Shown here: positions 1-64,000 of the stretch, in pieces
Numbering within the stretch: position 1 is the stretch's first letter
Layout: every line of letters starts with the position of its first letter
Position numbers and translations under genes: made by a program
Notes under the pieces: model-generated
Told to the model about the DNA's origin: nothing
Databases searched by the model: none
What the model saw: only the letters and a program-made list of their open reading frames with translations
Assembly (NCBI GenBank): GCA_030272155.1
Contig: CP126201.1
Coordinates: forward strand, 620,001 to 684,000
Length of the DNA stretch: 64,000 nt
Direction of reading: 5' to 3'
DNA from: Tetradesmus obliquus
Taxonomy: Eukaryota; Chlorophyta; Chlorophyceae; Sphaeropleales; Scenedesmaceae

Positions 1-125
1 TGCCATAGTGCTTTGATGGCCCTGTAGGCTGCGATATAGGAATCAACAGCAATAACAGTAGCAAAGGCTCTCACCTTATGCCTCTCGCCGCCAGGCAGTG
101 CCTTTATGGCCCTGTAGACCGCAAC
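1..125 (-). repeat. Ghost copies of GH1 exon 196-348 (3' part)
   Basis: Two partial, diverged copies of the exon end encoding AYRAIKALPGGERHK lie at about 1-40 and 70-125. The second keeps a donor-like ctcac on the plus strand. The true exon is at 196-348. Confidence 0.7.
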
Positions 126-870
126 AGGAAGCAACGACAATGTTATCAGCAAACCATAACAAAAGTGAACAGCCTGTCACTGAGTGACAACACACCTTGT
201 GCCTCTCACCGCCAGGCAGAGCCTTGATGGCCCTGTATGCTGCCGTGTGTGCTCGCAGCATGTTGAGCAGCGCCCTGCCTGCTGTCTCAAGGCCCAGCAT
301 CTGCCCTGGGGGGTAGGCCCCGAAGATGAAGCCCATGGTGGAGGAGGACTGCAGTCAAAGTCAAAGTCAAAGTAACAGTCAACAGTCATAGATAGTCAGA
401 GATAGGGTCAAACCCACCATCTGCCCTGGGGGGTAGGCGCCAAAGATGAAGCCCATGGTGGAGGAGGACTGCAGTCAAAGTCAAAGTCAAAGTAACAGTC
501 AACAGTCATAGATAGTCAGAGATAGGGTCAAACCCACCATCTGCCCTGGGGGGTAGGCGCCAAAGATGAAGCCCAAGGTGGAGAAGGACTGCGGTCAAAG
601 TCAAGGGCAACGGTCAGAGTCACAGTCAATCCTCTGCCACCTCACCATGGGCTCGTCGACTGTGGCCCACAGCTGGCATCACATGTGTGCTGTTTGCTGC
701 AGCTGCAGTGCAGGCATGCCAGCTGTTGGGTTTCAAAACACAGTGTACTGCTGGCGTGTGCCGCTGGCATTTAGGCTGCTTGGTGTGCTGTGTGCTGCTG
801 ACTCACCGTGAGCTCAATGTAGGTGGCCACAGCTAGCACTGCTGCTGCTCCTGGCACTGCTGCTGCTGGC

Positions 871-901
<31 letters not shown>

Positions 902-3900
902 TGCTGCTGTGCTGCCGGCTCACCGTTGGCTCGTTGAAGGAGGCCCACAGCTGGCACTGGTCGCCAAACAGCCGTACAGCATAGGCCCTAAACCCCACAA
1001 CCTTCCCCCCTAAACCCTAGCCCAGTCTTGCTGGCTCACCGTTGGCTCGTTGAAGGTGGCCCACAGCTGGCACTGGTTGCCAAACAGCTGCACAGCCTGC
1101 AGCAAACCACAGCACACCACAGCACAGTAACACTTAGCAAGGTTTCATGGCTTTGCTATACAGCTGCACAGTCTGCAGCCGACCACACGCAGCAGTAGCA
1201 TGCAAGTGCTGCTGATGGCTTCATCTGGCTATGGCCAGCGTTGGCCACTTTGTCATACACGACAGCAATAGATTTCACATGCCGTGCCTGCATGGACAGC
1301 CCACTTTGAGCGCCAGGAGCCTTGGGGCAGGGGGGCTTCTGGACCAGCATGCTTGCAGGTGGACGGTTGTACAGTTAACATGCCTGAAATTGTCATATCA
1401 GATGCAGCAGCAGCGCACCTTCACCGCGAAGTCCACAAAGATCTGGATGTTCTCCGCCTTTGTGAAGCCCCCAAGCTCATCAAACCACTGCAAGTGAGAA
1501 AATGTGGTGCAACAAAGGTCATGCAACGTGAGTACCAGCTTCTGTGGAAGCTGCAAATCTATTGCTGTGGGAAGCTGCGTTGCGCGCAATACTCAAGAGT
1601 ATTGTGCAGTGCATCATGCATGGCACTATGCATACGGTGCTGCAGTGTACATGGCAGCAACACCACCACTGCTGCTGCTGCTGCTGCTGCTGTGCCGCAC
1701 CTGCGGGTGTGTGAAGTGGTGCAGCGTGGCGTTGGGCGTCATGCCGCGCCGCAGCAGCGCGGCAAAGATGTCACGGTACCTGCAGGTGGCAGCAACAGTA
1801 ACAGCAGCAGCAGCAGCAGCGGCTGGGGCCGCTGGTGTCCGGTAACACCTTCTCCAGCCATGCCATATTGAATGTGAGTCTTATCACTGGCCTGTGTGTT
1901 ACCTCCGCATTGCTGCCTGGTGAAGCATCACCGCCACCAGCACATCAGTGCGCACTGCAAACGACCGCTGCACGGCTGCCTGGTCGAGCATTGCCAATTG
2001 ACGGTCAATAGCAGCACATCATTGGCAATCTAATCTTCACCACCAAAGCACATTATTGGGCATGAAAACACTCACCGCTGCACCGCGGCCTGGTCAATGA
2101 ACCCTCGGCGCGGCTCGATGCGGCTCCACTCCAGCAACAGCCAGAAGCCGTTGCAGCCCAGCACCTCATCTTCACAGCACCATGTCCCCTATTAACGCTG
2201 CACCCTGCGGGAGCCAATCTGCTTCTTGAAGCACACACCAGAACAGCCCAGCGCTGCGATGCTGCCTGGTCAACCACCACTGCCACCTTCACCAAAATGT
2301 ATATCAACCGTACATCAGCTCACCGCTGCACCGCGGCCTGGTCAATGAACCCTCGGCGCGGCTCGATGCGGCTCCACTCCAGAGACAGCCGGAAGCCGTT
2401 GCAGCCCAGGCTGGAGGATAAGGCGGCGTCCTCCTCGTACCTGCGGCAGCACAGCAGTACATCGCAACACAGCACAATGCACTGATCCTTCATTTTAACA
2501 TTTTCCAAAACGGAAGCCGTTGCAGCCCAGGCTGGAGGCCAGGGCAGCGTCCTCCTCGTACCTGCGACGGCGCAGTAGGCAGCATGCTCGAAGGGTCAGC
2601 CCAACCGGCGGCAGTGAGAGATGGTGCCAGGTCAGCTGTTGCAGCCCAGGCTGGATGCTAGAGCAGCGTCCTCCTCAAACCTGCTCAGACATGCATGTGG
2701 CAGGGCAGTAGGGCGTCTTCCAAGCAGTGAGGTTGGCAGTGTAACATTGCGCCACTCCAGCGACAGCCGGAAGACGCCCAGGCTGGGAGATAAGGCTGCG
2801 CCCTCCTCATACCCCATACCCGGCAGTGCAACAGACAGCACACCAGTCCGTGTAACGTCGCTCTAGTACGGTAAGTAGCCCTGCCGGACCCTCAGGTACG
2901 GTAGGGATGGTAGGAGGCGTGGAGGCGCATGAGGTACCCTCATCACCACCCACGTCCCCTTCCTTAACTTACGCGGTTGTTAAGTGTGAACACACCACGC
3001 GTAGCTCACTCACTCACTCACAGTGAGTAGCCTGCATAACCTGCACAGCTCGCAGCACGAACGCAGCACATGCATACTCATTGTAGTATGCTTGCTTCCT
3101 ACCTGTCGCAGCTGTGCTGGCAGTGCTCTAGCACAGAGAAATCAGGAACTTTGTTGAAATTCAGAGCCAGTGACACTAGTAACACACACCTGTGCCAGCT
3201 GTTGGGGCAGCGCTCCAGCACAGTGAACCCGCCAAGCAGCCGTGCCATGGCAACGCAAGGGAAGTTCAGCAGGCCCCAGCTCAGTTACCAACAACCCAAT
3301 TGCCACTGGCTTCGTTTGAATTTGAAAAGGGAAATACCCATACACGCACCTGTCCCAGCTGTTGGGGCAGCGCTCCAGCACAGTACAGCCGCCCAGCAGG
3401 CGCGCCATGGCAAAGCGAGGGCAGTTCAAAAGCCCCCAGTTCCGTTACAAAACCTCAATAGTAACAGAAATACACGCACGCACCTGTCCCAGCTGTTGGG
3501 GCAGCGCTCCAGCACAGTAAAGCCGCCAAGCAGCCGTGCCGTGGCAAAGCGAGGGTAGTTCAGCAGGCCCCAGCTCCGTTACGCAACCCCAACAGTACAA
3601 AATCGCACGCACGCACCTGTCCCAGCTGTTTGGGCAGCGCTCCAGCACAGTAAAGCCGCCCAGCAGGCGCGCCATGGCAAAGCGAGGGTAGTTCAGCAGC
3701 CCCCAGCTCCTCAAAATATGACTCCAGTTGCTGGACTCATCACCGCTGCTCTGCCACATGTGCGTGCCCACGCCTTTCACAAAGACTTCTTGGTTCAAGC
3801 TGTTCGTGAGGATTGGTAGTTCGAAGCTGCTGCCGGGCCTTGGGGCAGACATGCTGCTGCTGCCTGCAGGAGCAGGGGCAGCAGCACTAGGGCTGCCATC

Positions 3901-5181: not shown

Positions 5182-5213
5182 TCACCGCCGCGGCCGCTCA
5201 GGCCTCCCGCTGC

Positions 5214-5247
<34 letters not shown>

Positions 5248-7063: not shown

Positions 7064-7097
<34 letters not shown>

Positions 7098-9449
7098 CAC
7101 GCAGACGCAGCAGCAGCAGGAACAAACAGGCAGTGGTCAGTTTTCACACCGCAGTAAGATTGCTGCTGTCCTCGTCGCTGCTGCCCTCCCGCTCAGCAAG
7201 TTCGGCTAGCACACGACGCACCTGACAATACAGCAGCAGCAGCAGACACACACAGAGCAGCGGTCAGTTCTGGCAGCGAGGCAAGATCGCTGCTGTCCTC
7301 GTCGCTGCTGCCCTCGCGCTCCGCTAGCTCAGCCAGCACACGGCGTACCTGATGATACAACGGCAATAAAACGGCGGCAGCAGCAGACACACAGAGCAGC
7401 GGTCAGTTTCCGCGGCGCAGTGAGATCGTTGCCCTCGCGCTCAGCGAGTTCGGCTAGCACGCGGCACACCTGACAAACCAGCAGCAGCAGCAGCAGCAGC
7501 GGCGGCAGCAGGCACAGAGAAGCAGCGGTCAGTTTTCACAACACGGTAAGATCGCTGCTGTCGTTGTCGCTGCTGCCTTCGCGCTCAGCCAGCTCAGCTA
7601 GCACGCGGCGCACCTGACATTACAACGGCAGCAGCAGAGACAGAGAGCAGCGGTTAGTTCTAGCAGCAGACACAGAGAAGCGGCGGTCAGTTCTAGCAGT
7701 GACAAACATTGCTGCTATCCTCTGAGCATCCAGCGCCGCACATCGAACCCCGCAATGCCACCAGCAACCAGCAACAGCAGTGCAGCAAAAACAGACACAG
7801 CAGGAGCAGCAGTTAAGTTACGCAGCAAAAGCTGGATCTCCATCAGCACTGCATGACGTGACCACCAATCACCACTGATGGAGGTGCACGAACAATCTAC
7901 GTAACAGCTGCTATGTCATTTATTTTTGGCGCCTCACCTCTGGAGGGGTTTTGCCAGGCCCTGCTGCTGCCCGTGTGATCTCACTGCTGCACGCCAGCTG
8001 GTGCCTGCTGCCAAAACTACCAGGAGCACAACAGTCGTTGCTGCCAAACCACATTCCTGACGCGCCACTGGCAGCACTCAGCCAGGTGTACGCTGCTCAG
8101 CACCACAAGGTATTCAACAACCTACACAACATCTGTTACGACAGTTAGTCCACCGTGCCTCACCTCTGGAGGGGGTTTAGCCAGGCCCTGCCGCTGGCCG
8201 TGTGCTTTGACTGCTGCGCGCCAGCTGGTGGCGGCTGCCTGCACTGCTGCCCACTCCTCAGGCGGGATCTCGCGCACACTGGGGATGTGGATTGAGGTGA
8301 CCTGCAGTGAAGCAGCAGCAGCAGCAGCAGGTTATTGCTTGATTCGGCTGCATTGTGCCTGTTTGCTGCTGTATATGTCATTAGCTGGTGCCAAGACTCA
8401 CATGTTCCCACCCCTCTCTCCTAAAAATGCACTCCAGCCGCCACTCCGGGCGACCGAACAGCAGAACACATGAAGCACCTAGAATGCTGCAAGCTTCCGA
8501 GTAAAGTTCACCGCACGCTCCATCAGCCGGGCAGGCAGTGAGGCACTGGGGCTCAGCACCCCATCATCCTCAACCACTCTACACCAACACCACAAGCACA
8601 GGCATGCGGCCGACACACCACAACTGCCAGCACTTCTGCTCACTTGGTGCTGCCAGCACTGCCTCAACATACAGCACCACAAAGCCGCCATCTTCCACTC
8701 TTCAGCAGGGCAAAACAGCAATGAAAAGTAACATAGAACATACACTTCACTCACCGCGCGCTCCATCAGCCGGGCAGGCAGTGAGGCACTGGGGCTCAGC
8801 ACGCCGTCATCCTCGACCACCCCACACAAAATACAGCAGCATTCGCACACAACCACAAAAGCTGCCAGCACTTCTGCTCACTTGGTGCTGCAAGTACTGC
8901 CTCCACATACGGCAGCAGACACACAAGAAGCCGCCATCTTTCACTGTTAACAGCAATGAAAACATAACGCTTCACTCACCGCGCGCTCCATCAGCCGGGC
9001 AGGCAGCGAGGCACTCGGGCTCAGCACCCCATCATCCTCAACCACCCCGCCAATTCCAGCAATGCCGCTGCGCTCCACCCGCCGCTTCTTCATACTGCCA
9101 GCCACTGAACCCTCTCTCTGTAAACCCCGCATGCCACCACCCAGCATCCCAGATCCCCCTCGCGACAGCCCCGCTGCCGCCGCCGCACGCTTCGACGCGC
9201 CGGCCGCACTGCCGCCGCGGCCGCCGGCAACAGCAGCAGCAGCGCCGGCGGCTGAGCCGTCCCCAAGCAGCCGAGCAGCAGTGTATTGCCCGAGCCTTAC
9301 GCCGGCAGGCGAGAGTGACACTTCGATGCCATATGCTCTGCTCAGGAGCAGGCGTGCTGCTACGATCTGCTGCTCCACTAGCTCGAGGCTGCTGAAGATG
9401 GAGGCGGGCTCGACATCTGCTAATGCTGCTGCTGCTGCTGTGGAAAGAG

Positions 9450-9480
<31 letters not shown>

Positions 9481-14612: not shown

Positions 14613-14821
14613 CTACTGCGGCGACTCAGGCGCTGCTGCCGCCGGCTGCTGCTGCGGCTGCTGTGGCCTGCCAGCCTGATCCACAGAAGTCTCCGGCAAG
14701 CATGCCGTGTCCGTGCTGCTGCGCCTGTCGCTGCTGCAGCGCCGCCCGCCGATGCTCCTGCGCCGGCCCCGCTCCTTCTCCTTATCACGCTCCTTATCCT
14801 GCACGCCTGCCTTGGCTACGC

Positions 14822-14861
<40 letters not shown>

Positions 14862-14972
14862 GTCCAGCAGCGCCTTGCAGGATTCAATCCACTCCTCTAT
14901 TGCTCGGTACAGCGCCAGGTTGGGGCTGACCTGCTCGGGGCGCAGCTCGCGGCTGGTGAGAGGGTCACGCCT

Positions 14973-15036
<64 letters not shown>

Positions 15037-16870
15037 TAACAGACAGTTTGTTCAGCAGCAAGGCAACAGCAGCAGCACACCGACAGAGAGCAGGTTGGGG
15101 CTGACCTGCTCGGGGCGCAGCTCGCGGCTGGTCAGCGGGTCGCGCCTATGAATGTTTTTGACATAGCAGCAGCAGCAGCAGCAGAAATTGCAGCAGCGGA
15201 AGTTAGCATCTGTGCAGCTGTCTCCTCGGGGCACAGCTCGCGGCTGGTGAGAGGGTCACGCCTGCAGCAGCAGCATCAACAGACGATTTGGTCAGCAGCA
15301 AGGCAACAGCGGCAGCACACCAAAAGGCACAAGGATGGGGCTGACCTGCTCGGGGTGCAGCTAGCAGCGGGTCGCGTCAAAAGAAAGTTGTTTGACACAG
15401 CAGCACAGCGGCAGAAGCAGCAGGAGGTAGCAAGTGTGTTGTTGGCTGCTAGGGGCGTAGCTCGCGACTGGTCAGCGGGCCGTGGGGGAGCAGCAGCAGC
15501 AGCAGCAGCTGCAACAGATGACAGATCTGATCAGCAGCAGCAAGTAAAAGTTCAAGAACACTGTGATGTGCTGCATGTTGAAGTCAAAGTGCGCTGGCAT
15601 CTGCTGCATGCACTCACTTCTGTGCTCGCAGCCACTCCATGATTGCCGCGCGCTCGTAAGTGGCCCCGCTGCTGGTCACTGCGGGCTCCAGCATGATGCT
15701 GTGCATGTGCATGTGCAGGTGCAGGCGACACCAGCAAGGTGCCGCTGTACTGCGCAGCCCCACAACTCGCTGGTAAAGCTCAGCATTGGACACACAAATG
15801 CAGCAAATCGAGGTCACAGCATGTATATAGACAGCGCATTCTGATGTAATACCAATACCACTCACTTCTGTGCTCGCAGCCACTCCATAATTGCTGCCCG
15901 CTCATATGTTGCGCCACTGCTGGTCACTGCAGGCTCCAGCATGATGCTGTGCGTGATGGGGCAGATGAAGAAGTGGGGCACGCTGCACGCCTCCTCCACA
16001 GTCTCTGGCACCTGCAGCAGCAGCAGCAGCAGCAGTGGGGCAGATCAAGAACTGGGGCACGCCCGCCACCAGCAGCATCCCCAGGCTGTCGCCGCAAACA
16101 TAGAAGCCGCAGCAAGCATTAAACATACTGATGTTACGCCCCTGCTCATACAATCAAAGCGCTCGCACAAGCGGACGTGGCACGCACAAGCGGCCGACAG
16201 AGGTAAGCGCCTAAGCTATGCAGTACCTGCAGTGGCTTCGGCCAGTGCACAGCCTCCTGCAAACTGCCTGCCCTGCGCCCCCAACCGCCACCACCAGCAG
16301 CATCCCCCAGCTTCCGCCACCATCCCCCCGGCAGTCGCAGCACACACAGAAGCCACAGTCATCCCTGCTCATATGATCAAACCGCTCTGTGGCATGAACG
16401 TGCCTAAAGAGGTAGGCACATCCCAAGCGCAGAGCTGCCCACCTGTAATGGTTTTGGCCAGTGCACAGGCTCCTGTGTGCTGCCTGCCCTGCGCCCCCAG
16501 CCGCCACCAGCAGCATCCCCCAACTGCCCCGCCCTGCCACCAGGTGCTGCCGCAAACGCAGAAGCCACAGCAACCCCGAACACAATTGCAGCAAGCCGCT
16601 GCTTCTATGATAGAGCCGCTCTGTCACATAAGCCATATCTTACCTGCAAGGGTTTCGGCCAGTGCACAGCCTCCTGTGTGCTGCCTGCCCTGCGCCCCCA
16701 GCCTCCGCCACCAGCATCACCCAGCTGCCCCGCCCTGCCTCCAGGTGCTCTCGGACCCGCCCCCACCAGAGCTGCCATGGCATCCACTGCACCCACGCCA
16801 CCGCCGCCACCATCCGCAGCAGCAACGCCTGCGGGAGCGTCGGCTCTGGCAACCTGCAGCAGCAGCAGAA

Positions 16871-22689: not shown

Positions 22690-22733
<44 letters not shown>

Positions 22734-23883: not shown

Positions 23884-23928
<45 letters not shown>

Positions 23929-26748
23929 CAGGTGATGAGCACTCGCTGGGGTGACAAGGACCTGTCAGTTACATTGCACCCGATGAAAAAGTAGCCGTCA
24001 GTAACAGCATGTCACTTTTTGTTATGCCTCTCTTGCAGGCTGGTGATGGGCACACCCCCGGGTGACATGGACCCCGCTGTGCTGCTGCACCTGAGCAAGT
24101 ACTGATAACAGTTGATGTTATGTCACTTTGTTACTGTCGCAGGCTGGTGATGGGTACTCGCTCGGGTGACATGGACCCCGCTGTGCTGCTGCACCTGAGC
24201 AAGTACTGATAACAGTTGATGTTATGTCACTTTGTTACTGTCGCAGGCTGGTGATGGGTACTCGCTCGGGTGACATGGACCCTGCGGTGCCGCTGCACCT
24301 CATGAACACGCTGGGGCTCTCTGCCAAAGAGATGGACACGATTTTGAACAAGAAGAGCGGCTTGCTGGGTGTGTGCGGGCACAACGACCTGCGGGCCATC
24401 ATTGATAACAAGGTGAGGTTTCAAGGTTTGCGATGGAGGCGTTGGTGGAAGTTTGTGGCTTGAGCAAGGACAGATGACCTGCACAGTTGCCTGGCAGCTG
24501 CCAGCAACCATTTACTACAGTAGCCAGAAGCCTGGGGCTATCTGCAGAACACGGATGCACACCATCCTGAACAAATACTAAGCTGCTGGGTGTGTGCGGG
24601 CACGACGACTTACGGGCCATCATTGACAACAAGGTGAGAGCACTGCTGCTTCGCTGCTGCTAGCTGCTGTAGCAAAGACAAATGTTAGCTGCTGTAACGA
24701 TGACAACTGTAGCACAGTCACGATGAGAGGGCGCTGGACATGTTGGCCTGGACCCATATGCAACCCACTCCACTGCAAGCTCTCTCATCACTGCAATTGT
24801 ATGTGCCTGCTTTCTGCAACTGCAGGCTGCTAGTGACGAGCGTGCCGCGCTGGCGCTGGGCATATTTGTGTACCACTGTTGCGGCTGGTGGTGTGCAACC
24901 GTTGTCAGCACTGTCGTTAATTCTGACATTATCACCTTCACTGCCATTTGACCCCTCTCCGCAGGCTGCTGGTGATGAGCGTGCAGCGCTGGCGCTGGAC
25001 ATGTTTGTGTACCCTGAACTCAAACCCTGCTTCCCGAATCACTCAAACCCTGAACCCTGCAGGCCGCTGGTGCCGAGCGTGCAGTGCTGGCGCTGGATAT
25101 GTTTGTAAATGGGTCAGAAACTGCCAGTGCCAAACACCGCTGCTGTAATGTGCTGCTGTTTGCAGGCAGCTGGTGACGAGCGTGCAGCGCTGGCGCTCGA
25201 CATGTTTGTGTACCGGGTGCGCAAGTACATCGGGGCGTATGCTGCTGCGCTGAGCGGGCGCGTGGACGCGCTGGTGTTTAGTGCGGGCATCGGCGAGAAC
25301 AGCAGCATCATCCGCGGCTTGATTTGCGAGGACATGCAGGTGACTGGTTTGACAATGGTTTTTTTGGTTGCTTTTGTTGTTTTTTCTTTTCAATGATCAA
25401 ACATTACAGTGGATTGGGTTCGTAGTTGTGTTCGGTTAGGAATGGTAAGCAAATAGAGGCAATAGTGGGTTAGCGCGGGCAATGGCGGGCTCTGTGGATG
25501 CGCTGGTGTCCAGTGTGTGTTCAGCGCGGGCATCGGCGAGAACAGCAGCATCATCCGCGGCTTGATTTGCGAGGACATGCAGGTGACTGGTTTGACAATG
25601 GTTTTTTGGTTGCTTTTGTTGTTTTTTCTTTTCAATGATCAAACATTACAGTGGATTGGGTTCGTAGTTGTGTTCGGTTAGGAATGGTAAGCAAATAGAG
25701 GCAATAGTGGGTTAGCGCGGGCAATGGCGGGCTCTGTGGATGCGCTGGTGTCCAGTGTGTGTTCAGCGCGGGCATCGGCGAGAACAGCAGCATCATCCGC
25801 GGGCTCATCTGCGAGGACATGCAGGTGACTTGTTTGACAATAGTCTTTGCAGCACAACACATTGAGCATCAGCAGTTGGTGGGGCCATGGCGACATCAGC
25901 GCGCCTGACCTCTCTCTTGAATTCTCGCTGTGACTGACGGAGCGGCGCTGTGCTGTGTTTATTTCTGTGCATCTGCAGGCGATGGGTGTATCCATCGATG
26001 ACGCCAAGAACAAGGCCACAGTGGGCGGGGCGGAAGGTGACATCAGCGCGCCTGACCCTTCTGTGACGCTTGCCTTGACTGACATTTTTGGCTCTGCTGT
26101 TTTTTCTCTTCTCTGCTCATCTGCACCCTGCAGGCGATGGGTGTGTCCATCGATGACGCAAAGAACAAGGCCACAGTGGGCGGGGCCCAGGGCGACATCA
26201 GCGCGCCTGACCCTTGTCTGACGCTTGTTGTGACTGACACAGGCGCCTCTGTTTTGTGTTTTTGGTTGCTGCTCTGTGTGCATCCCGCAGGCCGTGAATG
26301 TGTCCGTTAATGACGCAAAACAAAGTCATAGTGGGCGGAGCTAAGGGTGACATCAGCGCGCCTGCTACTAACATTGTTTTGACTGACAGAGCGGCTCTCT
26401 GCTGTGCAATTTTTGTGCATCCCGCAGGCCGTGGGTGTGTCCGTCAATGACACAAAAAACCACAGCCACAGTGGGCGGTGCCCAGGGTGACATCAGCGCG
26501 CCTGACTCATGTTTGACAGTTGCTTTGACTGACAAATGTATCTGCTCCTCTGCACCCTGCAGGCGATGGGTGTGTCCATTGATGACGCTAAGAACAAGGC
26601 CACAGTGGGCGGGGCCCAGGGCGATATCAGCGCGCCTGACTCCCGCATGCGCGTGCTGGTGGTGCCAACGGATGAGGAGCTGAGCATTGCACAGCAGACG
26701 CTGGACGTGGTCAGCAAGGTCAAGAGCAAGGTGGCGGTGGCAGCATGA
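21298..26748 (+). CDS. ACK: Acetate kinase, organelle-targeted, about 470 aa
   Basis: Interconverts acetate plus ATP and acetyl phosphate plus ADP, the last step of fermentative acetate formation with phosphotransacetylase (not in this window). Seven exons keep phase: 21298-21909, 22752-22841, 23139-23247, 23634-23709, 24247-24412, 25166-25339 and 26563-26748. Motifs seen: [15 protein letters not shown] (nucleotide fold), [19 protein letters not shown] with the catalytic His, [31 protein letters not shown] and the late AGIGENS. From the second in-frame Met (21466) the enzyme would be 414 aa, close to bacterial AckA. The longer start at 21298 adds 56 Arg/Ala/His-rich residues without a family counterpart, which suits a plastid or mitochondrial presequence. 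Six of the seven exons have ghost copies next to them. Confidence 0.95.
21910..22260 (+). repeat. Ghost copies of acetate kinase exon 1 end in an AGTACAGC repeat
   Basis: The end of exon 1 (FQGVPQ plus gtggg donor) recurs near 22002 and 22101. The spacing is filled by a degenerate cagtacagcaggcagtac repeat. Confidence 0.8.
22388..22665 (+). repeat. Ghost copies of acetate kinase exon 2 start
   Basis: [14 protein letters not shown] copies with a ctgcag acceptor lie at 22388-22430 and 22618-22662, ahead of the functional exon at 22752. Between them, a 68-bp unit with gtgcctcagctgcgcgctga is duplicated at about 22446-22580. Confidence 0.88.
23099..23138. repeat. (CTG)n acceptor tract of acetate kinase exon 3
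   Basis: About 12 CTG units end in the ctgcag acceptor at 23133-23138. Confidence 0.93.
23717..23935. repeat. Degenerate CAG/CAACGGCAG tract in acetate kinase intron 4
   Basis: About 220 bp of CAG, CGG and AACGGCAG units directly after the exon 4 donor. Here the sense strand is CAG, opposite to most introns in the window. Confidence 0.9.
23930..24246 (+). repeat. Three ghost copies of acetate kinase exon 5 start
   Basis: [16 protein letters not shown] copies with a gcag acceptor lie at about 23932-23995 ([10 protein letters not shown]), 24040-24104 and 24144-24208. The functional exon starts at 24247. The last two lie in 104-bp units that are nearly identical. They end in a TGA that the functional exon lacks. 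Confidence 0.92.
24540..24640 (+). repeat. Ghost copy of acetate kinase exon 5 end
   Basis: A diverged copy of [17 protein letters not shown] with a gtgaga donor, containing a stop codon. It lies 3' of the functional exon 24247-24412. Confidence 0.85.
24826..25110 (+). repeat. Three ghost copies of acetate kinase exon 6 start
   Basis: [20 protein letters not shown] copies at about 24826-24870, 24965-25015 and 25062-25110 come before the functional exon at 25166. The frames of the copies are shifted. Confidence 0.85.
25340..25825 (+). repeat. 242-bp tandem repeat of acetate kinase exon 6 end plus intron
   Basis: Two extra units, ending near 25580 and 25822, contain the [18 protein letters not shown] segment, its gtgact donor and about 180 bp of T-rich intron sequence. 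They are almost identical to each other. Confidence 0.93.
25978..26515 (+). repeat. Four ghost copies of acetate kinase exon 7 start
   Basis: [22 protein letters not shown] copies at about 25978-26050, 26134-26210, 26290-26370 and 26427-26510. Each has a gcag acceptor, and all end near agcgcgcctga. The functional exon is 26563-26748. Confidence 0.93.
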
Positions 26749-26759
26749 TAAAGCGGACT

Positions 26760-37600: not shown

Positions 37601-40600
37601 GCCAGGTGTGATTGCAGCACCATATCTCAGACGTTGGATGGAAGCCAATGTAGGGCAGGCAGCCCAGCCAGTTGCACAGCAGATGCTGTGTTGGTTAGTA
37701 TTCTGTGTCAGCATGTTGAGAGGTGCCAGAACCTGCACATGTGGCCTGGGCGGGCCTGGCAATTGAGCAGCTGGCACGGCTGGGCATCAACACCTTTGCG
37801 GTGACGCCAGGTGCGTTACTGTCAGAGCTTTTCATATTGTTATAGTAGGTTATGTTGAGGTCAGAGAGACAGCGCTGAAACATAGCAAGAGACTGCGCTA
37901 TCCCGCACGCGCGGAGATGGCCTGAGCGGCGCTTGCAGTTGAGGAGCTGGCGCGGCTGGGCATCAACACCTTTGCTGTGGCGCCAGGTGCGATTGCAGCA
38001 CCATATATCAGATGATGGCAATTCAAAAAGGCGGGGCGGAAACTCAGCCGATATTCAAGCAGATGTGCTGTGTGTTGCTAGTTCTGTATGTCACGTTGAG
38101 GGGTGAGCATATTGCACAAGTGGCCTGGGCAGGGCTGGCAATTGAGGAGCTAGCGCGGCTGGGCATAAACACATTTGCTGTGGCGCCAGGTGCGACTTGC
38201 AAACCTTTGTATTCACACGATGCTATCTGTGAAGACGCCAAACCCATAGTATCACCTGACACAGGCAAATGCTGCTCTAATCAGGCTTGGTTGTGGGCAG
38301 CATTTGATTTTCATTACAAAGCCATATGTTTATGCCGATTTGTTTTACCTTGCAGGCTCCCGCTCCTCCCCGCTGGCCCTAGCAGCTGCCAGCCACCCCT
38401 GCAGCCAGCTCACCATCGCCGTCGATGAGTGCCTGAGGTCACTCCACAAGTCACTTGTAGTACTGATTATCTGTGACTGTGCTGCCCCAACAGCTTCCAC
38501 CACAGCAACTCAGCAAACCTGAAGTGTCACCTGACACAGGGAACTGTTACTCAGAACAGTTCAGACGCGCACAGCAACTCACAAACGTATTTGTTGTATG
38601 TGTCTTGATCTTTACCATGCAGGCTCTCGCTCCTCGCCGCTGGCCCTGGCAGCCGCCAGCCACCCCCGCAGCCAGCTCACTATTGCCATCGATGAGCGCA
38701 GCCTGGGGTTTTGGGCCCTAGGGTTCAGCAGGTCAAACCCTGCCGGGCTGCCTGCTGCTGTGATCTGCAGCAGCGGCACAGCAGTGGCAAACCTGCTGCC
38801 GGCTGTGGTGGAGGCGAGCCAGAGCAACGTGCCGCTGCTGCTGCTGACGGCTGACAGGTGGGTGTTAATTCATGTCATTTGACAGTTATATGATGATTGT
38901 TACGTGTCGTAACATTCTGCCTGCTGTGGTTGAGGAGAGCCAGAGCAATGTGTCGCTGCTGCTGCTGACGGCTGACAGGTGAGTGTTAATTTACGTCATT
39001 TGACAGTTATGTGATGATTGTTACGTGTCGTAACATGCTGCCTGCTGTGGTTGAGGCGAGCCAGAGCAATGTGCCGCTGCTGCTGCTGACAGGTGGGAGC
39101 TTGCCTTTACTGCTTATGCTGTGTGGGCACGTATTTTATCACGTGCTTTCGGCGCTGCAGAAACCACCAACACACCAGGTGCTGATCATCTTCCATGTAC
39201 AATGCAGGAAATTTGCACCTGCTATGCGATACAGTGAAACGCTGATTATGCTTACAAAACACAAAACACATAAAACATATTTGTCTCTGCTCGGTGCTGC
39301 AGGCCGTATGAGCTGCGGGACACAGGCGCCAATCAGACCATCGATCAAGTAAAGATCTTTGGCGGTTACACCCGCTGGGCCTCAGATATTTGCCCACCCA
39401 GTGACCCCCGGCAGCTGCCAGGCAGAGTAATCCTCAGCACGGTTGACACAGCATTACGTCATGCCGTTGGCGGGCCGCGGGCGGGCCCGGTGCATTTGAA
39501 TTTTCAATTCCGAGAGCCGCTGGCGCCTAGTGCAGCGGCCTGGGATGCTGACAGGTTTTTGTGGGGTTTAGAGGCCTGGCAGGGTTCAGCTGAGCCCTAC
39601 ACCACACAGGTGCTGAACCCTGGTGTGGCTGCAAACAGCAGCAGCAGCAGCGGCTTGATGCCTGTGCTGCAGCCTCAGCTGGTGAACAGCCAGAGCAACA
39701 CAGCAGCAGCAGCAGCAGCAGCAGCAGCTAGTCCAGAGCTGGGCCGTGTGCTGCAGCTGCTGCTGACAGCTCAGCGAGGCCTCATTGTAGTGGGTGAGCA
39801 GCCTCACCCAGGCGCAGCAGCAGCAGCAGTGCAGCTGGCAGCAGCACTGGGCTGGCCTGTGGCAGCAGACGTGCTGTCAGGCTTGCGAGTCGGCAGCAGC
39901 AGCAGCAGCAGCAGCAGCAGTGTGCTGCATCACTTTGATCATGTGTTGCTGGGGGCTGGTGCAGCAGCAGGAGCTGATGTGGGCTGGTGGGGTGCACTGC
40001 AGCCTGATGTGGTGCTGCAGCTGGGGCCGCGGGTGACATCAAAGCGGGTCAACCAGTTCATGGTGAGTTCAAGGTGTCATGGTGTGAAGTTTGGTGCGAA
40101 GTATGGTGCGAAATCACATTGGGAGCTGATGTGGGCTGATGGTGTGTGCTGCAGCCTGATGTGGTGCTGCAGCTGGGGCCACGGGTGACATCAAAGCGCA
40201 TCAACCAGTTAATGGTGAGTTCACGGAACAACTATGAAGTTGTCTGTGAGGCTGGGTGTGAACTTTGGTGTGAGGTGCATTGCAAGGTGTGAGGGACGCA
40301 ATCTGCGCACATAAGCGCACAAAAGCACACATCTGTGCACATAAGCACACACAAGCACGGTTAAGTGCGCACACACATAAGCACACATCTGCGCACATAA
40401 GCGCACACAAGCACGCTTAGGTGCACACGCACACAAGCACACATCTGCGCACATAAGCGCACACAAGCACGCTTAGGTGCACACGCACACAAGCACACAT
40501 CTGCGCACATAAGGTCATACAAGCACGCTTAGGTGCGCACGCACATAAGCACACATCTGCACACATAAGGTCATACAAGCACGCTTAGATGCGCACGCAC

Positions 40601-41874
40601 ATAAGCACACATCTGCACACATAAGGTCATACAAGCACGCTTAGGTGCGCACGCACTTAAGCACACATCTGCGCACATAAGCACACACAAGCACGCTCAG
40701 GTGCACACGCACATAAGCACACATCTGCGCACATAAGCGCAGACAAGTTTTTGTTTGTTGCTGCAGCCTGATGTGGTGCTGCAGCCGGGACCGCGGATGA
40801 CTTCACAGCGCATCACTCAGTTCATGGTGAGTTTATAGTGTATTGGTGTGAAGTATGGTGGGAAGTATGTGGGCTGGTGGGGTGTGCTGAAGCCTGATGT
40901 GGTGCTGCAGCTGGGGCCGCGGGTGCCATCAAAGCGGGAACCAGTTCATGGTGAGTTGGTGTGAAGTAGGGTGTGAAGAATGGTCTGAGTGCAAGGTGTG
41001 TAGGCTGGTGGGGTGTGCTGCAGCTGGGGCTGCGGGTGACATCAAAGCGGGTCGAGTTCATGGCGAGTTGGTGTGAAGTAGGGTGTGAAGAATGGTCGAG
41101 TGCAAGGTGTGTAGGCTGGTGGGGCGTGCTGCAGCCGGGGCCGCGGGTGACATCAAAGCGGGAACCAGTTCATGGTGAGTTGGTGTGAAGTAGGGTGTGA
41201 AGAATGGTCCAAGTGCAAGGTGTGTAGGCTGGCGGCAAAGCACCTCTCTGGTCTCCGACCATGTGTCCACCCTGTTGTGGTCAAAGGTAAAATGTGTAAC
41301 ACATTGTTTGTTGCTCCTGCAGGAATGGAGTGCAGCGGGCGGCAGCGATGGCAGCCGCCCAGCCACGCCGTGGCTGCTGGCTTGCCCTGGCCCTGAACGG
41401 CACGATGCAGCACACCTAGTCAGCTGTCACCTGGCAATGCAGCCGCAGCAGCTGCTGCAGCTGGTAGCCAGCCACCTGCAGCAGCAGCAGCAGCAGTGGG
41501 GCGACATGGCGCATGGCAGCAGCAGCAGCAGTAACGGCAGGTCTAGCAGCAGCAACGGCACTCTGCAGCCATCTGAGCAGCAGCAGCAGCAGCAGCGGCC
41601 GGCTGCGGAGTATGCTCAGCTCCTGAGTCAGCTCGATGCTGTTGCAGCAGCGCAGATTGAAGCCAGCCTTACAGAGATGACTCAGCTCAGTGAGATGGCT
41701 GTAGCGCGGGTGCTGTCAGCGCAGCTGCCGGCGGGCGCTGGCTTGTTTTTGGGTAATAGCATGCCTATCAGAGACATGGATATGTATGCCGGGCCTAGGG
41801 ACAGTCAGGCGCCACTAGCAGCAGCAGAAGTGGCAGCAGCAACGATCAGCAGCAGCGATGGTGCGGCTGGAGAC

Positions 41875-41908: not shown

Positions 41909-44900
41909 CGCTAGGGTTTGCAGCAGCAGGGTTTGGGAATGCTGCTGCAGTTGGAGGGTCGTCATCACTGACCGCACCTGAGCTGTCAGCTGAGATGGAT
42001 GATGAAGATCTGTTAGGATTGGGAAATAACGTCACTTCCATCGGCTCCATGCCCCTTGGCGGCCTGATCAGCGGTGGCTTGGGCAGCCAGGGTTCAGGGT
42101 TCGGTAGCGGCGCTGGCCAGAAGGGTTTAGGGGTTGGATCTGGCGCAGGGTTCAATGGCTCTGGGGTTTGGGGCGGCTGTGTGCCTGAGGCGCTGGTTGG
42201 TGTGCCTGTTGCTGCCAACAGAGGGGCCAGCGGCATTGATGGAGTGCTCAGCACTGCTGCAGGTGAGAACTGCATGGGGCTCAACGTAACTGCTTGACAT
42301 AACAGGAAATTGTTGCATCAACAGTGTCTTGGATTGAGGTACAGAGCGCCTGGCGCGGCACTGTGGCCCTATGGCTTGTGTAGAGAGCCATTGCTGCACT
42401 GGCCCGCCATTTGACCAGCAGGCGACGTGTCATTTGGGTGAGCGTCAGCGTATGTCCGCTCATGTATCATGCGCCTTGCATTTGCCAATCCACGTTTCGC
42501 TGCGCTGCAGGCTTTGCTGCTGGGCTGCACCGCCCTGTTACCCTTGTGGTAGGCCACCTGTTGTTCCTGTATGACGTCAACGGGCTGTATTGTCCTTGCT
42601 TGCTGCTGCTTCTTACCATGCAGGTTTTGCTGCAGGGCTGCACCGCCGGTGACATTGGTTCTTGGTGACCTGTCGTTCCTGCATGACGTCAACACATCTG
42701 CTTTGCGCCTTGCATGTGCCACTGCAACATTCTGCTTGTTGTGCCGCAGGTTTTGCTGCAGAGCTGCACAGGCCGGTGACGCTGGTTGTTGGCGACCTGT
42801 CCTTCCTGCATGACGTCAACGGGCTGTATCGTCCATGCGTGCTGCTGCTTCTTACCATGCAGGTTTTGCTGCGGGGCTGCACCGCCCGGTGACACTGGTG
42901 GTGGGCGACCTGTCATTCCTGCATGACGTCAACGGGCTGTATCGTCCATGCGTGCTGCTGCTTCTTACCATGCAGGTTTTGCTGCGGGGCTGCACCGCCC
43001 GGTGACACTGGTGGTGGGCGACCTGTCATTCCTGCATGACGTCAACACCTGTTTCAACCCTTTTGCATGTGCCACTGCATGCTGCTGTCCTTTCCCTTGC
43101 AGGTTTTGCTGCGGGGCTGCACCGCCCGGTGACACTGGTGGTGGGCGACCTGTCATTCCTGCATGACGTCAACGGACTGTCGCTGCTGCGTGGAGGGGAG
43201 ATGGCGCCGCCGCTGACTGTGGTGCTGATCAACAACAGGTGGGTTTTGTTTTAAGAGATGGCTGTGATCTACTTTAGAGTATGGAGGCCAGTACATTAGT
43301 GATGTGCTGCGCATGGTGTTGCCCTCTGGCTGCAGACCATGCATGTGTCCCATCAAGGTTGAAATCCAATGTCTTGCGCACTGTTGGGCCCCACATGAAG
43401 TCACTCCTTGCTTGTTGATCGCGGATGGCGGATCCGCTGACTGTCATTGTTGTCACACTTTGTGGTCACAAACAGGGGCGGCGCCATCTTCAGCTTCCTG
43501 CCGGTGGCTGGTGCGGTGGGCCAGGAGGCCTTCGAGCGGCTGTGGGGCACGCCGCAAAATGTTGATCTGGAAGGTGCGCATGTTGTGCAGGAAATATCTA
43601 CATTGTTGGTTGGTAGGGTTTCTGTCTGTGTTGAGGTTGGTTGCCTTGTGTATTGCCATGCGTGGGGCAGGAGGCCTTTGAGCGGCTCTGGGGCACGCCA
43701 CAAATTGTTGACCTGGAAGGTGCGTGGAGAGTTCTTATGAGGCTGGGAGCTGTTTAAACCTGCCGTATGTTGTTTCTATGGCGTTCGCTGCATCTTCTTG
43801 TTGCCATGTGTGTGGCACGCCGCGAAATTTTGACCTGGGAAGGTGCGGTGCAGACTGCAGCCGCTGTATGAAAGCTCTGTATACCAGCTCTGTAAGCTTC
43901 TGGCGGGGTTGCTGCATCTCTCTTCGTGTTGCCATGTGGGTGGCGCTTGGCGCGGAGCGCACAGCGGGCGAGCCTTTTCACCCCTGCTGTGCTTCTGTCA
44001 TGTGGAAATGGTACGCAGTGCGCTGAATGCACTTTTCAACCATTTGAGGCGGTTGTGGCTTATCCCATCAAAGATGGTGCCAGGACCTACATCAACTATC
44101 TTTCTTTGATACTAATGCACGTGCAGGCATCTGCTGAGCACACGGCATACCACACCAGCAGGTAACCTCCCCAAATGACCTAGCCCCCGCACTTGCAACA
44201 GCCTGAGGTGCTGTGCACCAAACTCTGTGCAGGCATCTCACACCAGCACCCACCTTGCCCCGCCCCTGCTGTGCTTTGTCATGTGCGCATAAAACAAAGT
44301 GACTGAATGCACTGCCTGGTCCCATCTGTATTGCTTTCTCGCAGGTATCTGTCGCGCACATGGCATCCCACACCAGCGGGTAACCTCCCCAAATGACCTA
44401 GCCCCTGCGCTAGCCACAGCCTGGGGCATCAACAGGCACAGCATAGTGGAGGTGAACACAGACAGACACACCAACCTCGCTATGCACAAGCAGCTGCAGG
44501 CGGCAGTGGCAGCAGCTGTGCACAAGGCATACGGCCTCCTGACACAACGACCAGCAGCTGCTGCAGCAGCAGGTGCTGGATCAAACGGCAGTGCTGAAGT
44601 TGGCTGGCAGGAGCAGCAGCAGCAGCAGCAGCAGCAGTTGGCGCAGCTGCTGCTGCAGCCGCAGCTGCAGCTGGCTCCGCAGCTGGTCATCGCTGCAGCA
44701 AGTGTTTCCAGCTACAGCTTGAAACTTGCCAAGCCGCTGACAAGCACGGACAGCAAATCAGCAGCAGCAGCAGCAGCAGGGCCGCAGCAGCGACGGGGCT
44801 TGCTGCTGAAGCTCACCCTTGCTGCCTCTCACACAGCGGCAGCAGCAGCAGCAGCAGCAGCAGATGCTGATAGTGCAAGCTATATTGGAGTAGGCGAAGC

Positions 44901-54038: not shown

Positions 54039-55443
54039 TCATCTGTCCGGCACAAAGTCTGGGTCATCGGAGAAGGGCGTCTTGCCAGCCTGTGCGCAGG
54101 CGTCAGCAATCTTCTCCTCCTTCTCACACGGCTTCTGGCTGCCACAGCGGCACCTGCAGCAGCAGCAGCAGCAGCCATGAGCTCAACAGCGCCATGTAGT
54201 GCACCTGTGCGCATGCATGGCATACACAAGTGCAAGCAGCACCTGCAATTCACATCCACACAACACAGGGGCGCTGTATGCCAGCCGGCCAGCCGGCATG
54301 CCGGACAGCTGCAGCTGAGGCTCATGTTTACCAGGCAAGCAACCGGCCAGGTGACCAGGATACGCGCAGTACCGCAGTGCAGCTATACTCGCGCAGCTGG
54401 AGCAGCAGCACCTCACCTGTGGCTGACCAGCAGGCTGGCCCTAGCTGGTGGCGGCATGGCCTCATCAGCCGCCACCTGCTGCAGGTTCTTGCAGCTGCGG
54501 CCGCCCATGGCAGCGTCCGACCACTCGGGAATGAACCTGCAATCAAAACATGGGCAGCGGCAACGCCGTGTGACCCAATTGAATCGGTGTGACATAGCTG
54601 GAGAACCGCAGGGTAGGATGATGCTGGTGCTTCGAATGCAGCTTGCCCATGCCAAATCTGGAAGCGCCAGAAAGGGTTGGCATGTAACACGTGTCAGTTT
54701 TGAAGCGCATGGATCTTGCACTAGAGGTGAGCGCTGCTGCTGCTGCAACAACCACAGCCATGACTCATGTTGTCACACACACCACAACACATCTGATGCG
54801 AATGCGCAGATGCATGAACGCCTGCAGCACAGCTCACCAGGAGTCTGTCAGCTTGCGCTCAGCAGGAAAGGCACCAACAGCAGGGCCCTGCACCAGCAGC
54901 AGCAAGCAGGGACATTGCAGCATGTTGTTTCAAGAAGGGTGCAGTCCGTGGCATCGCCAGAAATCAACCCAGCAGCATTTAGTGCTGCCATGACTTTGCT
55001 GCAGCAGAAGCCTGTTTCGCAGATGCTAGCCCGCATATTTGTGCTGTTTTCAGGCATCTGCGCTGCGCACACCCTCATGACCCTTGAGCGCCACCGTCAG
55101 ACACCCCAAAACCGCACCCACCTCCAGGTACGGTTTAAACCCCCGCTCGGTGCTGGCCAACACATCGTTGACGCTCACTTTGAAATGCGCTACGGAAGCT
55201 CCTCAGGTGCAGCTGCCACAAACAACCCGCCCCGCGCCAGCTCAACCACAAACCCCAAAACCCCGCCCACCTCCAGGTATGGTGTGAACCGCGGCTCCCT
55301 GCTGGCCCACACATTTGTATTGATTTCAAATGCGCTGCGGAAGCTCTTGGGGTGCAGCCGCTCCGGCACACCATCCAAAATCAGGTTGTGGCTGGTCATC
55401 TCGCGGCAGGGTTGCCGCAGCCACATCAGGCCCTGCTCGCTGC

Positions 55444-57425: not shown

Positions 57426-57460
<35 letters not shown>

Positions 57461-60569: not shown

Positions 60570-60605
<36 letters not shown>

Positions 60606-61278: not shown

Positions 61279-63190
61279 ATGGCAACACTCGCTTGCCAGC
61301 GTGCTGGCCTTCTCAGGGCGCCAGCCCTCGCTCCCAGGAGCGTGGCTGTGCGTGTGGGGGCCCCTGGCTCTCGCCTGACCTCTAGCTTCGTTGGCAGGCC
61401 AGCCAGTGCCGCGCCAGTGCTGCCCAAGCTCGCATCTCGCGTTGTTGCGCGCAAACCACTCCAGGTCTGCAACTCGGCCGCTGGAGCCCCCGCCGCTCCC
61501 GCACCATTCAAATGGGGCGCAAACATGAAGGATCTGGCGATCTGCATCGGCCTGGGCGTGGCACTCTACCTGTGCCCTCACCCCGCTGGGGTAAGTTGCA
61601 GGGCCAGCAGGTGCACGTTGGTGCACGGGAAGCGTGGGGTATATGGAGCAGAACCCAGCGGAAGATGCAACGTAGCTTTGACGTATCCATGCAGCAGCGC
61701 TGCACGATGCCAATGTGGGCATGCAGCAGCAGTACTTCTGCTGACAGAGCAGCACAGCTCAGCAGGAGCACATGTGATCAGCGGGCTGCGCTGGCCGCTG
61801 CTGAATTGCATGCGCAGCGCATCACGAACATACAAATGTTTGGTTGCTTATGTACTGCACTTGCGCCTGCCCCTGAGCAGCCAACATGAACAACATCAGC
61901 AGCTTTGTTTCAGCATTTTGACCAGCCAGAAGCGCATCACATGTGCCCTGATTGTTGAGCATCATTCCCCCGGCAGAAACCCACAAACTTCTTGTGCGTA
62001 TCAACAATGATGGTGTGCGGGAAAATTCATTTCTCCTGCGTTGTGTTCATGTGCACTCTACAGCGGGTCAAGGCAACTGCTCATTCTGCATCCCAATCAA
62101 CCTGCGTGTTGTGCTGCGCTGCTGCTGCTGCTGCTGCTGCTGCAGGTGACTCCCAAGGCCTGGAAGGTGCGAGACGGAGTTTACCTTTCTCAGTGCAGTT
62201 GCTGTTGCTTTTCAAAAATGCTGCAAAATCTGGGGGAGTGGGACATGGCAGCATAGTACATGCAGCGAAGCAGCAGCACAGAGCGCGATGGTAGTTGCTT
62301 GCACGCATACTGCACAGCGTAAGCACTGCCGCACAATCGCGTAAAGCAATTAGAAGTGCTGCAGCAGGCGGACGGTGTTGTCCCTTTATGTTGGTTTGTG
62401 TGCAGCTGATGTTGATTGTGCTGTGCTGCATTGCAAGGAAACTTGACTTCCGGTCTTGGCCATTTTGATGTGTTGTGCATCATGCACTATGCGTAGCAAA
62501 GGTATCTCTGCAGCACCCCACATGTGTCACAGAGCGGTTTCAAAGCGTATTATTGCACATCACACATCGCCCTGACGCCTGCTGCTGCTGATGTTTGCCG
62601 CATGTTTCCTGCAGCTGCTGGCCATCTTCACCACCACCATTGCAGGTGGGTGCCACAGCAGCACAAGCACATCAGCGCACACACAGCAGCATAGCTCTTG
62701 TGCATACAAAGCGGCACAGGTCTTACGCATACACAGCAGCACTGCTCTGTTGCATGCACGGCAGCAAAGCTCTGTTGCATCCCGAGCAGCACAGCTGTTG
62801 TGCACACAGCACGATTCTTTAGCATACACAGGGCAGCACAGCTTTTCAACATACACAGGACAGCACAGCACATCACACTGCCTGAGCAGCAGCTAACACA
62901 CAGTGTGCATCACACGCAGCACTGCAGGACGGCAACCAAAACTGCATTCAGCTTGTGATTGTGTCACCCCTTCTGCCAGTCCCAAGCACCCAGCCAGCTT
63001 GTCACTCCTGCTGTGCAGTGCACCCACTTGCGCATGTATGCAGCCTCCGCAGAACCAGCCATGGTCCCAGCATATAACATACAGCAATCTTACAGCCAGC
63101 TGTTGTCACTCTGCATTTGGCAGGCTCGTGCCTGCCTAGCACCAATGCCTGGCAGCTGCTTCAGTGCTGTCGACACACTGCTGTTGCCTC

Positions 63191-63241
<51 letters not shown>

Positions 63242-64000
63242 TGTGTATATCACCCCCAGGCATCATCACCACGCCGCTGCCGCTGGGTGCTGTGGCCATG
63301 CTGGGCCTGGGTGGTGCCATGCTGACCAAGACGCTCACCTTTGCCGAGGCCTTCTCCGCCTTCGCCACAGAGATCCCGTGAGTGGCATGTTACATGCTGT
63401 CATATGTTACATGCGACACTGATGTAACACAAACAGCACCAGTCGTGACTGCTGACTTGGAATTTGCTCTGCAGTTGCTTTGTGGGGCAAGGAGGAAGGA
63501 GCAGGTCGCCGCTGTCTCACACACCCACTAAGCCACATCTGTGTCATCTGCACTTCTGCCGTTCAACCTGCAGCTAGCTGATTGCGATCGCGTGCTGGTT
63601 GCTGGCGGCCTCATGAACTATGCACCTCCGCACACCTCCTCTTTGTCACGGAGTGCCACCTGTATCATTGCTGCTGTGCTGCCGCAGCTGGCTGATTGCG
63701 ATCGCGTACTGGCTGGCTGGCGGCTTCATCAAGTCTGGCCTGGGCAACCGCATCGCCTACTCCATGGTGGCGGCATTCGGCAAGACCACCCTGGGCCTGA
63801 CCTACTCCCTGGTGGGTGGCCTGGTGTAATCCAACCTGTGTTTCTGGACATGCTTTGCAGTATCTGGGTGTGCTCTTCCGTTGTCTATGTGGTGCCAGAT
63901 TGCTGCTGCTACTATTGATGGGCGCGGCATGTGCAGCTGCACTTGATGTATTGCTTAGCGTGTGCTGCTGCTGCTGCTTCTGCGGCTGCTGCTGCTTCAG
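61279..64000 (+). CDS. Plastid dicarboxylate (2-oxoglutarate/malate-type) translocator, 3' end beyond window
   Basis: Envelope antiporter of the DASS (SLC13-like) family that exchanges 2-oxoglutarate or glutamate for malate, linking plastid nitrogen assimilation to the cytosol. Exons in phase: 61279-61590, 62146-62166, 62615-62645, 63260-63377 and 63688-63811, giving 202 residues, about a third of the family length. The start is an Ala/Arg/Ser-rich transit peptide (MATLACQRAGLLRAPALAPR), consistent with the inner envelope. Next come KDLAICIGLGVALYL, PLPLGAVAMLGLGGAML, TKTLTFAEAFSAFATEIPWLIAI and GGFIKSGLGNRIAY, all characteristic of plant DiT proteins. Whether it is DiT1 or DiT2 cannot be decided from this part. 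Exon 2 is a 21-nt microexon. The last 189 bases are intron; the final bases (ctgcttcag) may be the next acceptor. Confidence 0.94.
62119..62145. repeat. (CTG)n acceptor tract of translocator exon 2
   Basis: An uninterrupted CTG run merges directly into the ctgcag acceptor of the 21-nt exon. Confidence 0.92.
63574..63612 (+). repeat. Ghost copy of translocator exon 5 start
   Basis: Repeats the first 40 bases of exon 63688-63811 (WLIAIAYWLAGG) after a ctgcag acceptor, with a few changes. Confidence 0.88.

What the first reader, a model, noticed from the sequence alone, without database searches (positions are those of the whole stretch)
1..64000. Genome segment riddled with ghost exons: tandem partial copies of exon-intron junctions in eight of nine genes
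Beside at least 30 functional exons I find 1-6 diverged tandem copies of one end of that exon together with the adjoining intron. Each copy normally retains one splice junction (acceptor side or donor side, rarely both). The functional chain stays in phase through every gene checked. This points to an ongoing local duplication process tied to exon edges, not random satellites. It could feed alternative splicing, decoy splice sites or exon evolution.
Basis: partly seen in the sequence, partly recalled or inferred. Interest (0 to 1): 0.9.

Follow-up and report, generated by a model that had tools for sequence, protein, structure and literature searches.

The report
Exon-end copies kept inside introns
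In the genes examined of this green alga, introns hold partial copies of the end of a neighbouring exon that mostly still look like working protein code and still carry a good splice site, which is not what dead duplicates should look like.

Summary
Of 46 local repeat arrays in the window, 37 cross a working exon's edge. 52 partial exon copies attach to 27 ends of 21 exons. All 25 acceptor-end copies lie upstream of their exon; all 22 donor-end and 5 stop-end copies lie downstream; 45 of 47 keep AG or GT. A 200-kb stretch of contig C1 repeats this: 20 copies, all on the expected side, 19 with the dinucleotide. Profile searches find the layout in some Cpn60/TCP1, HSP70 and kinesin genes.

'Ghost' fits only some of them. 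The exon part stays near 90% identical while the adjoining intron is often unrecognisable. At splice edges differences are mostly synonymous: 164 to 100 nonsynonymous, and 54.5 to 22.5 in C1; neutrality predicts 73% nonsynonymous. Seven of 27 families, including the stop-end copies, look neutral. Copies show signs of exchange. My best reading: old short tandem duplications whose exon ends trade sequence with the working exon. Direct use in splicing, edge-targeted birth and artefact remain open. No RNA or reads were available; gene models are home-made. Seven literature searches listed no report.

The parts
75..628 (-). GH1-like gene: working exon 196-348 with two acceptor-end copies (413-468, 533-588) and a donor-end copy (75-116)
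2071..2813 (-). GH1-like gene: working exon 2324-2440 with acceptor-end copies (2511-2561, 2749-2812) and a donor-end copy (2076-2161)
8508..9048 (-). Donor end of long exon 8980-10807 with copies 8512-8568 and 8755-8811 (counted among full-exon rows because I had cut the exon to 57 bases)
14617..15508 (-). U-box gene: exon 14617-14970 with acceptor-end copies 15091-15145 and 15222-15261
15611..16011 (-). U-box exon 15866-16011 with donor-end copy 15618-15707 (9 synonymous, 1 nonsynonymous change)
23924..24638 (+). acetate kinase exon 24247-24412 with acceptor-end copies (24039, 24143) and a frameshifted donor-end copy (24532-24633)
24820..25848 (+). acetate kinase exon 25166-25339 with three acceptor-end copies (24826, 24965, 25063) and two donor-end copies (25517-25582, 25759-25824)
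25873..27533 (+). acetate kinase last exon 26563-26748 with acceptor-end copies upstream (25979, 26134, 26291, 26432) and stop-codon-end copies downstream to 27531
32302..33257 (+). PHYLLO-type (menF-menD-menC-menH) gene: exon 32578-32731 with an acceptor-end copy and donor-side copies that stop short of the junction in the strict count
35777..36722 (+). PHYLLO-type gene: exon 36273-36722 (chorismate-binding) with acceptor-end copies at 35786, 35892, 36181 (35786 is not in the strict set)
37291..38201 (+). PHYLLO-type gene: exon 37291-37429 with four donor-end copies (ending 37605, 37810, 37986, 38189); mosaic among copies
38344..39090 (+). PHYLLO-type gene: exon 38623-38857 (MenD) with an acceptor-end copy (38356-38432), a donor-end copy (38911-38978) and a third that stops short (39032-39090)
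39303..41235 (+). PHYLLO-type gene: exon 39303-40062 with five donor-end copies (ending 40214, 40826, 40950, 41062, 41174); 8 synonymous to 16 nonsynonymous changes, so this family looks neutral
42470..43238 (+). PHYLLO-type gene: exon 43103-43238 with five acceptor-end copies; exon parts of 42863 and 42976 nearly or fully identical to the working exon while introns differ
43476..43724 (+). PHYLLO-type gene: exon 43476-43573 with donor-end copy 43662-43719
55103..55439 (-). Gene model that also holds the FkbM-type domain: exon 55271-55439 with a frameshifted donor-end copy 55122-55216 (4.5 synonymous, 10.5 nonsynonymous: looks neutral)

Best explanation
Short duplications (offset to the nearest copy mostly about 90-250 bases, often near 120) over exon edges left partial exon copies inside introns. 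The outer copy stays in the mRNA; the inner ones are skipped because each has only one splice site (inferred). Most splice-edge copies then keep exchanging sequence with the working exon end, by gene conversion or unequal crossing over, so selection on the working exon keeps their codons and splice junction intact. The intron beside them is not held and drifts away. Shown: the layout, the codon bias at splice edges, the retained splice sites, the step in identity at the junction and statistical signs of exchange. Inferred: the exchange route, the origin of the first duplication and exon-definition skipping.
For: Layout: 52 of 52 window copies and 20 of 20 C1 copies lie on the expected side. 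Conservation: in 50 hand-listed working-versus-copy pairs the first 36 exon bases are 0.91 identical, 30 intron bases past the splice consensus 0.55, random sequence 0.37. Ungapped over 47 copies: 0.94-0.96 within 10 exon bases of the junction, 0.98 at the splice dinucleotide, 0.57 at intron positions 6-10, 0.40 at 21-40. Codons: nonsynonymous share 0.417 over 52 copies (family bootstrap 0.32-0.51), 0.379 over the 47 splice-edge copies (bootstrap 0.29-0.47), 0.29 in C1, 0.46 copy against copy (47 pairs); neutral expectation 0.734, and neutral copies budding from a constrained exon cannot go below 0.579. Exchange: exon and intron topologies conflict in 11 of 38 resolved triples, all in three families; 31 of 86 informative site pairs in eight hand-picked families are incompatible with one tree, against 3-4% on average without exchange. 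Exon identity is alike with and without intron homology (0.91 in 17 copies, 0.90 in 20; 10 of 47 lie between).
Against: The exchange route was not observed, only its pattern. Seven of 27 families reach 0.579 or more, among them the five-copy family of exon 39303-40062 (8 synonymous, 16 nonsynonymous) and the stop-end copies (15 to 28). Exchange should act at the stop end too, so its neutral look speaks for a constraint tied to splicing. 11 of 52 copies have a frameshift or stop. Exon identity falls with distance from the junction (0.84 at 21-40, 0.76 at 41-60, ungapped), as a splicing-centred constraint might also give. The exchange tests rest on few arrays whose copies are not independent. 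Working exons come partly from a home-made gene finder.
Confidence: 0.44

Rival explanations
1. The copies are used: their splice sites and codons are under direct selection because some transcripts splice to or from them (alternative or regulated splicing).
For: Copy splice junctions score like functional ones (acceptor median 7.3 vs 7.4, donor 6.2 vs 6.5; the scoring matrix was trained on models that include copies). 45 of 47 and 19 of 20 keep the dinucleotide. Splice-edge copies are codon-biased while the stop-end copies are not.
Against: No second splice site at the truncated end clearly above random (p=0.19 and 0.77, although very weak donors are rarer near acceptor-end copies, 8% vs 28%). 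Offsets are multiples of 3 in 13 of 47 and 4 of 20 (my count), as by chance. Inclusion would repeat peptide segments inside acetate kinase; four relatives' proteins show no repeats.
Confidence: 0.22
2. Duplication is targeted to exon edges at birth, by a process coupled to transcription, splicing or RNA, and copies only the exon end with its splice site.
For: Edge enrichment beyond random placement. Several young C1 pairs stop within a few bases of the junction, for example 116728 at 100% identity over 51 bases with unrelated flanks.
Against: 17 of 47 copies have intron homology, including full-length recent repeats (25274, 293, 38790). The stop-codon end is copied as well. Birth bias alone cannot explain the synonymous excess.
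Confidence: 0.14
3. Plain random tandem duplications; only those over an edge or in introns are tolerated, and the copies decay neutrally.
For: Seven of 27 families fit, for example 32431 (2 synonymous, 4 nonsynonymous, intron homologous), exon 39303-40062 (8 to 16) and the stop end (15 to 28). An intergenic array and an intergenic C1 duplication exist.
Against: Over all splice-edge copies the nonsynonymous share is far below 0.579 (p=8e-11 treating changes as independent; no family resample of 4000 reached it), and in C1. Exon and intron decay differ; splice sites are kept; edge share is above random.
Confidence: 0.1
4. Assembly artefact: pieces of diverged haplotypes or strains joined in tandem, so the copies are alleles of working exons.
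For: Allele-like differences: synonymous bias, diverged introns, intact splice sites.
Against: Up to five copies per end; 11 of 52 broken; a fine scale near 120 bases; patchy spread (30% versus 3.8%); a single locus in the assembly for acetate kinase.
Confidence: 0.1

Closest known systems
Small tandem duplications made at DNA breaks (Pol alpha-primase or Pol theta routes; PMC8355091, PMC5730883: title and start of abstract seen)
   Same: Short local head-to-tail copies
   Different: Here copies concentrate at exon edges and mostly keep codons and splice sites while the intron part is lost; breakpoints were not analysed
Intron gain or shift by tandem duplication (PMC2891723, PMC4974935: title and start of abstract seen)
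   Same: Tandem duplication that involves splice sites
   Different: Here existing introns are lengthened and the reading chain stays the same; no new intron was shown
Tandem exon arrays with mutually exclusive splicing, such as Dscam (PMC3236188: title and start of abstract seen)
   Same: Arrays of coding copies between constant exons
   Different: The copies counted here are one-ended fragments without a clear second splice site, many in enzyme genes
Pseudogene donors for gene conversion (immunoglobulin V genes; recalled, not looked up)
   Same: Unexpressed copies that exchange sequence with a working gene can stay code-like
   Different: Here the units are mostly 40-90-base exon ends within one gene, and no diversifying role is seen

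Membership tests
Simple tandem duplication | Repeated unit as long as the offset, homologous through intron and exon | tested here: inconclusive
   Met by some arrays (25274, 293, 38790); 17 of 47 copies have clear intron homology, 20 none, 10 between
Mutually exclusive exons | Each copy has both an acceptor and a donor | tested here: not met
   One-edge copies have no second site clearly above random. Full-exon copies (8 rows of GH1 3484, 7545 and 22.6 kb) were set aside and could be such exons
Mutually exclusive exons | Alternative inclusion in mRNA | not testable with these tools
   No RNA data for this genome
Introners | Near-identical introns dispersed over many genes | tested here: inconclusive
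   All 128 window pairs are local. Only one 1.6-kb stretch was searched genome-wide for this (35160-36730, 40 of 707 candidates scored): elsewhere it matched a separate ~160-bp dispersed repeat and three short weak matches, not the exon copies
Neutral relics (pseudo-exons) | Nonsynonymous share at neutral level, exon and intron decay alike | tested here: not met
   Splice-edge copies 0.379 and C1 0.29 versus at least 0.579; exon 0.91 versus intron 0.55. Seven of 27 families taken singly do fit
Concerted evolution by exchange | Copies trade sequence with the working exon | tested here: inconclusive
   Topology conflict in 11 of 38 triples and 31 of 86 incompatible site pairs versus 3-4% support exchange among copies; statistical only, few arrays

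The most novel reading that the evidence does not exclude
The genome keeps intronic reserve copies of exon ends that exchange sequence with the working exon. Noncoding DNA is thereby held code-like and splice-competent by selection acting through exchange, a long-lived state between exon and intron, present also in housekeeping genes.
Probability: 0.33. Interest if true: 0.85.

Novelty: new variant of a known kind. Interest (0 to 1): 0.7.

Why it matters
Dead exon copies should lose their codons. If these do not, selection is reaching DNA that is not in the main mRNA, either through exchange or through splicing not yet recorded. It would also be a natural test of how a spliceosome picks one of up to six similar splice sites, and a warning for gene annotation, since a naive gene finder strings the copies into the protein.

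Tried and rejected
Pure neutral decay was rejected for the splice-edge copies as a set by codon counts and the exon-intron contrast, not for every family. A second gene copy as the source was not found for acetate kinase: one locus only. Inclusion of copies with retained spacers is unlikely because offsets are not biased to multiples of three. Introners: no sign in the one stretch searched. Rfam (gathering threshold) and tRNA scans of the window were empty. An early count held three families in the wrong frame and three misaligned; I replaced it. and totals include full-exon rows (and one search's listing low-complexity rows) and are not used. An early null for edge crossing compared whole arrays with single units; one search compares segments, and both are quoted. 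Literature searches listed no report of this; titles and starts of abstracts were seen, no paper was opened, and the library lacks most subscription journals.

Full report
Setting. The window is C11:620001-684000 of a 104.66-Mb genome in 17 contigs. Pfam marks acetate kinase at 24-27 kb, pieces of a menF-menD-menC-menH fusion of the PHYLLO type (name recalled) within 35-48 kb, U-box and bromodomain exons at 12-16 kb, a weak GH1 match near 2.4 kb and an FkbM-type domain near 58 kb (not every frame and strand of the window was scanned).

Gene models. No annotation or RNA was available. I wrote a small gene finder, trained it on the window and on 200 kb of contig C1, and chose working exons by hand from its output. 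It strings many copies into the protein and fuses genes, so the choice matters. For acetate kinase the chain of working exons was checked against four relatives' proteins, the nearest 96% identical over the aligned part, with no repeated segment. In one region my chain took a copy (22618) for the working exon and lacks 14 residues; the better match lies at window 22731-22853.

Layout. 74 matches were found for 26 of 27 chosen exons within 1600 bases; 52 are one-edge copies on 27 ends of 21 exons (10 full-exon, 6 internal and 6 low-complexity dropped). All 25 acceptor-end copies lie upstream, all 22 donor-end and all 5 stop-end copies downstream; 45 of 47 keep AG or GT. In C1 an automatic version found 21 matches, 20 of them one-edge, 20 of 20 on the expected side and 19 of 20 with the dinucleotide. 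This orientation is what a duplication over an edge must give, so it confirms the layout rather than a mechanism.

Spread. Profile searches show overlapping neighbour hits in the same orientation in four or five of 11 Cpn60/TCP1 loci (C12, C14, C16, C17 and perhaps C15), two of nine HSP70 loci (C13 and C17) and, clearly, one of about 34 kinesin loci (C2 near 7.43 Mb, three copies). These counts are mine from the listings, with different E-value limits (1, 0.1 and 0.001); short copies are easily missed and a few further overlaps are ambiguous. The window is far denser than C1: 30% against 3.8% of bases in local repeats. So the copies are not evenly spread.

Edge enrichment. Random segments of the same lengths give 31% edge among edge plus intron in the window; 34 of 41 were seen. 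C1: 36% expected, 22 of 26 seen. At 92% identity or more: 10 of 12 and 7 of 7 against 25%. The random placement used the present sequence; in a collapsed version with whole units the expectation is 49% and 35 of 39 were seen. C1 exons come from the gene finder and may include copies. Exon constraint also lengthens the detectable life of edge copies. The enrichment therefore cannot be read as birth bias alone.

Codon constraint. Working exon against copy, 52 copies: 179 synonymous and 128 nonsynonymous differences, by codon position 78, 45, 184. The 47 splice-edge copies: 164 and 100, share 0.379, family bootstrap 0.29-0.47. The 5 stop-end copies: 15 and 28, share 0.65, above the 0.579 bound and not significantly different from it. 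C1: 54.5 and 22.5, positions 9, 13, 55. Copy against copy: 185 and 159. The substitution spectrum measured in noncoding repeat pairs (291 substitutions) predicts 0.734 nonsynonymous; a constrained exon with neutral offshoots predicts at least 0.579. Splice-edge copies without frameshift or stop give 0.35 (38 copies); the 11 broken copies 0.48. Seven of 27 families reach 0.579 or more: GH1 807, the GH1 2324 donor end, the acetate kinase stop end, exon 32578, exon 39303-40062, and two of the FkbM-type model; four of the seven hold six changes or fewer.

Intron contrast. Identity of the exon part averages 0.91, of the adjoining intron 0.55, with random sequence at 0.37 under the same alignment (50 pairs listed by hand). 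The drop is at the junction, just after the splice consensus. 17 of 47 copies keep intron homology, 20 do not and 10 lie between; exon identity is 0.91 and 0.90 in the first two groups. Hence at least part of the copies arose with their intron; others may have lost it or been born without it.

Exchange. In the exon 43103 array the working exon equals copies 42863 and 42976 over the compared exon part, yet its intron is nearest to copy 42750. In the exon 37291-37429 array copy 37810 groups with 37986 and 38189 at two middle sites and with 37605 at the two last ones. Over the families with two or more copies 11 of 38 resolved triples conflict between exon and intron, all in three arrays. In eight hand-picked arrays, two of them full-exon, 31 of 86 site pairs are incompatible; simulations without exchange give 3-4% on average and reached that level in at most 0.25% of 400 runs.

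Why skipped. The truncated end of a copy has no splice site clearly above random, so a copy is unlikely to be defined as an exon of its own. That is an inference about exon definition, not a test.

Weighing. Exchange explains the mosaics and the exon-only identity. It does not by itself explain why stop-end copies and the exon 39303-40062 family look neutral; a constraint linked to splicing would fit the former. I keep exchange as the best single reading, at 0.44.

Limits. The frame of some GH1 and U-box exons rests on the gene finder alone, the copies in one array are not independent, no relative's genome could be read, and 264 kb of this genome were seen as sequence apart from short loci. 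The literature statement rests on seven searches of an open-access library, listings only.

Noticed in passing
window 35477-35635: A dispersed repeat of about 160 bp inside a PHYLLO-gene intron: 40 of 707 first-look candidates were scored and lie on many contigs at 84-89% identity. No Rfam match at gathering threshold. Nature unknown.
   Followed up: partly
window 40316-40747: A 56-bp satellite-like array (7.7 copies, 92% matches) sits between copies of the donor end of exon 39303-40062.
   Followed up: no
window 46176-46468 and 48493-49206: Arrays of 27-bp and 13-bp units containing acceptor-like TTGCAGG.
   Followed up: no
window 29089-30251: Intergenic tandem array of 180-182-bp units, up to 97.6% identical, between acetate kinase and the PHYLLO-type gene.
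   Followed up: no
window 5186-10807 and other exons: Long CAG/GCT runs in predicted exons give poly-Ala, poly-Gln and poly-Ser stretches.
   Followed up: no
window 50549-52368: The gene here has long predicted exons, and no local repeat pair lies between 49.3 and 55.1 kb.
   Followed up: no
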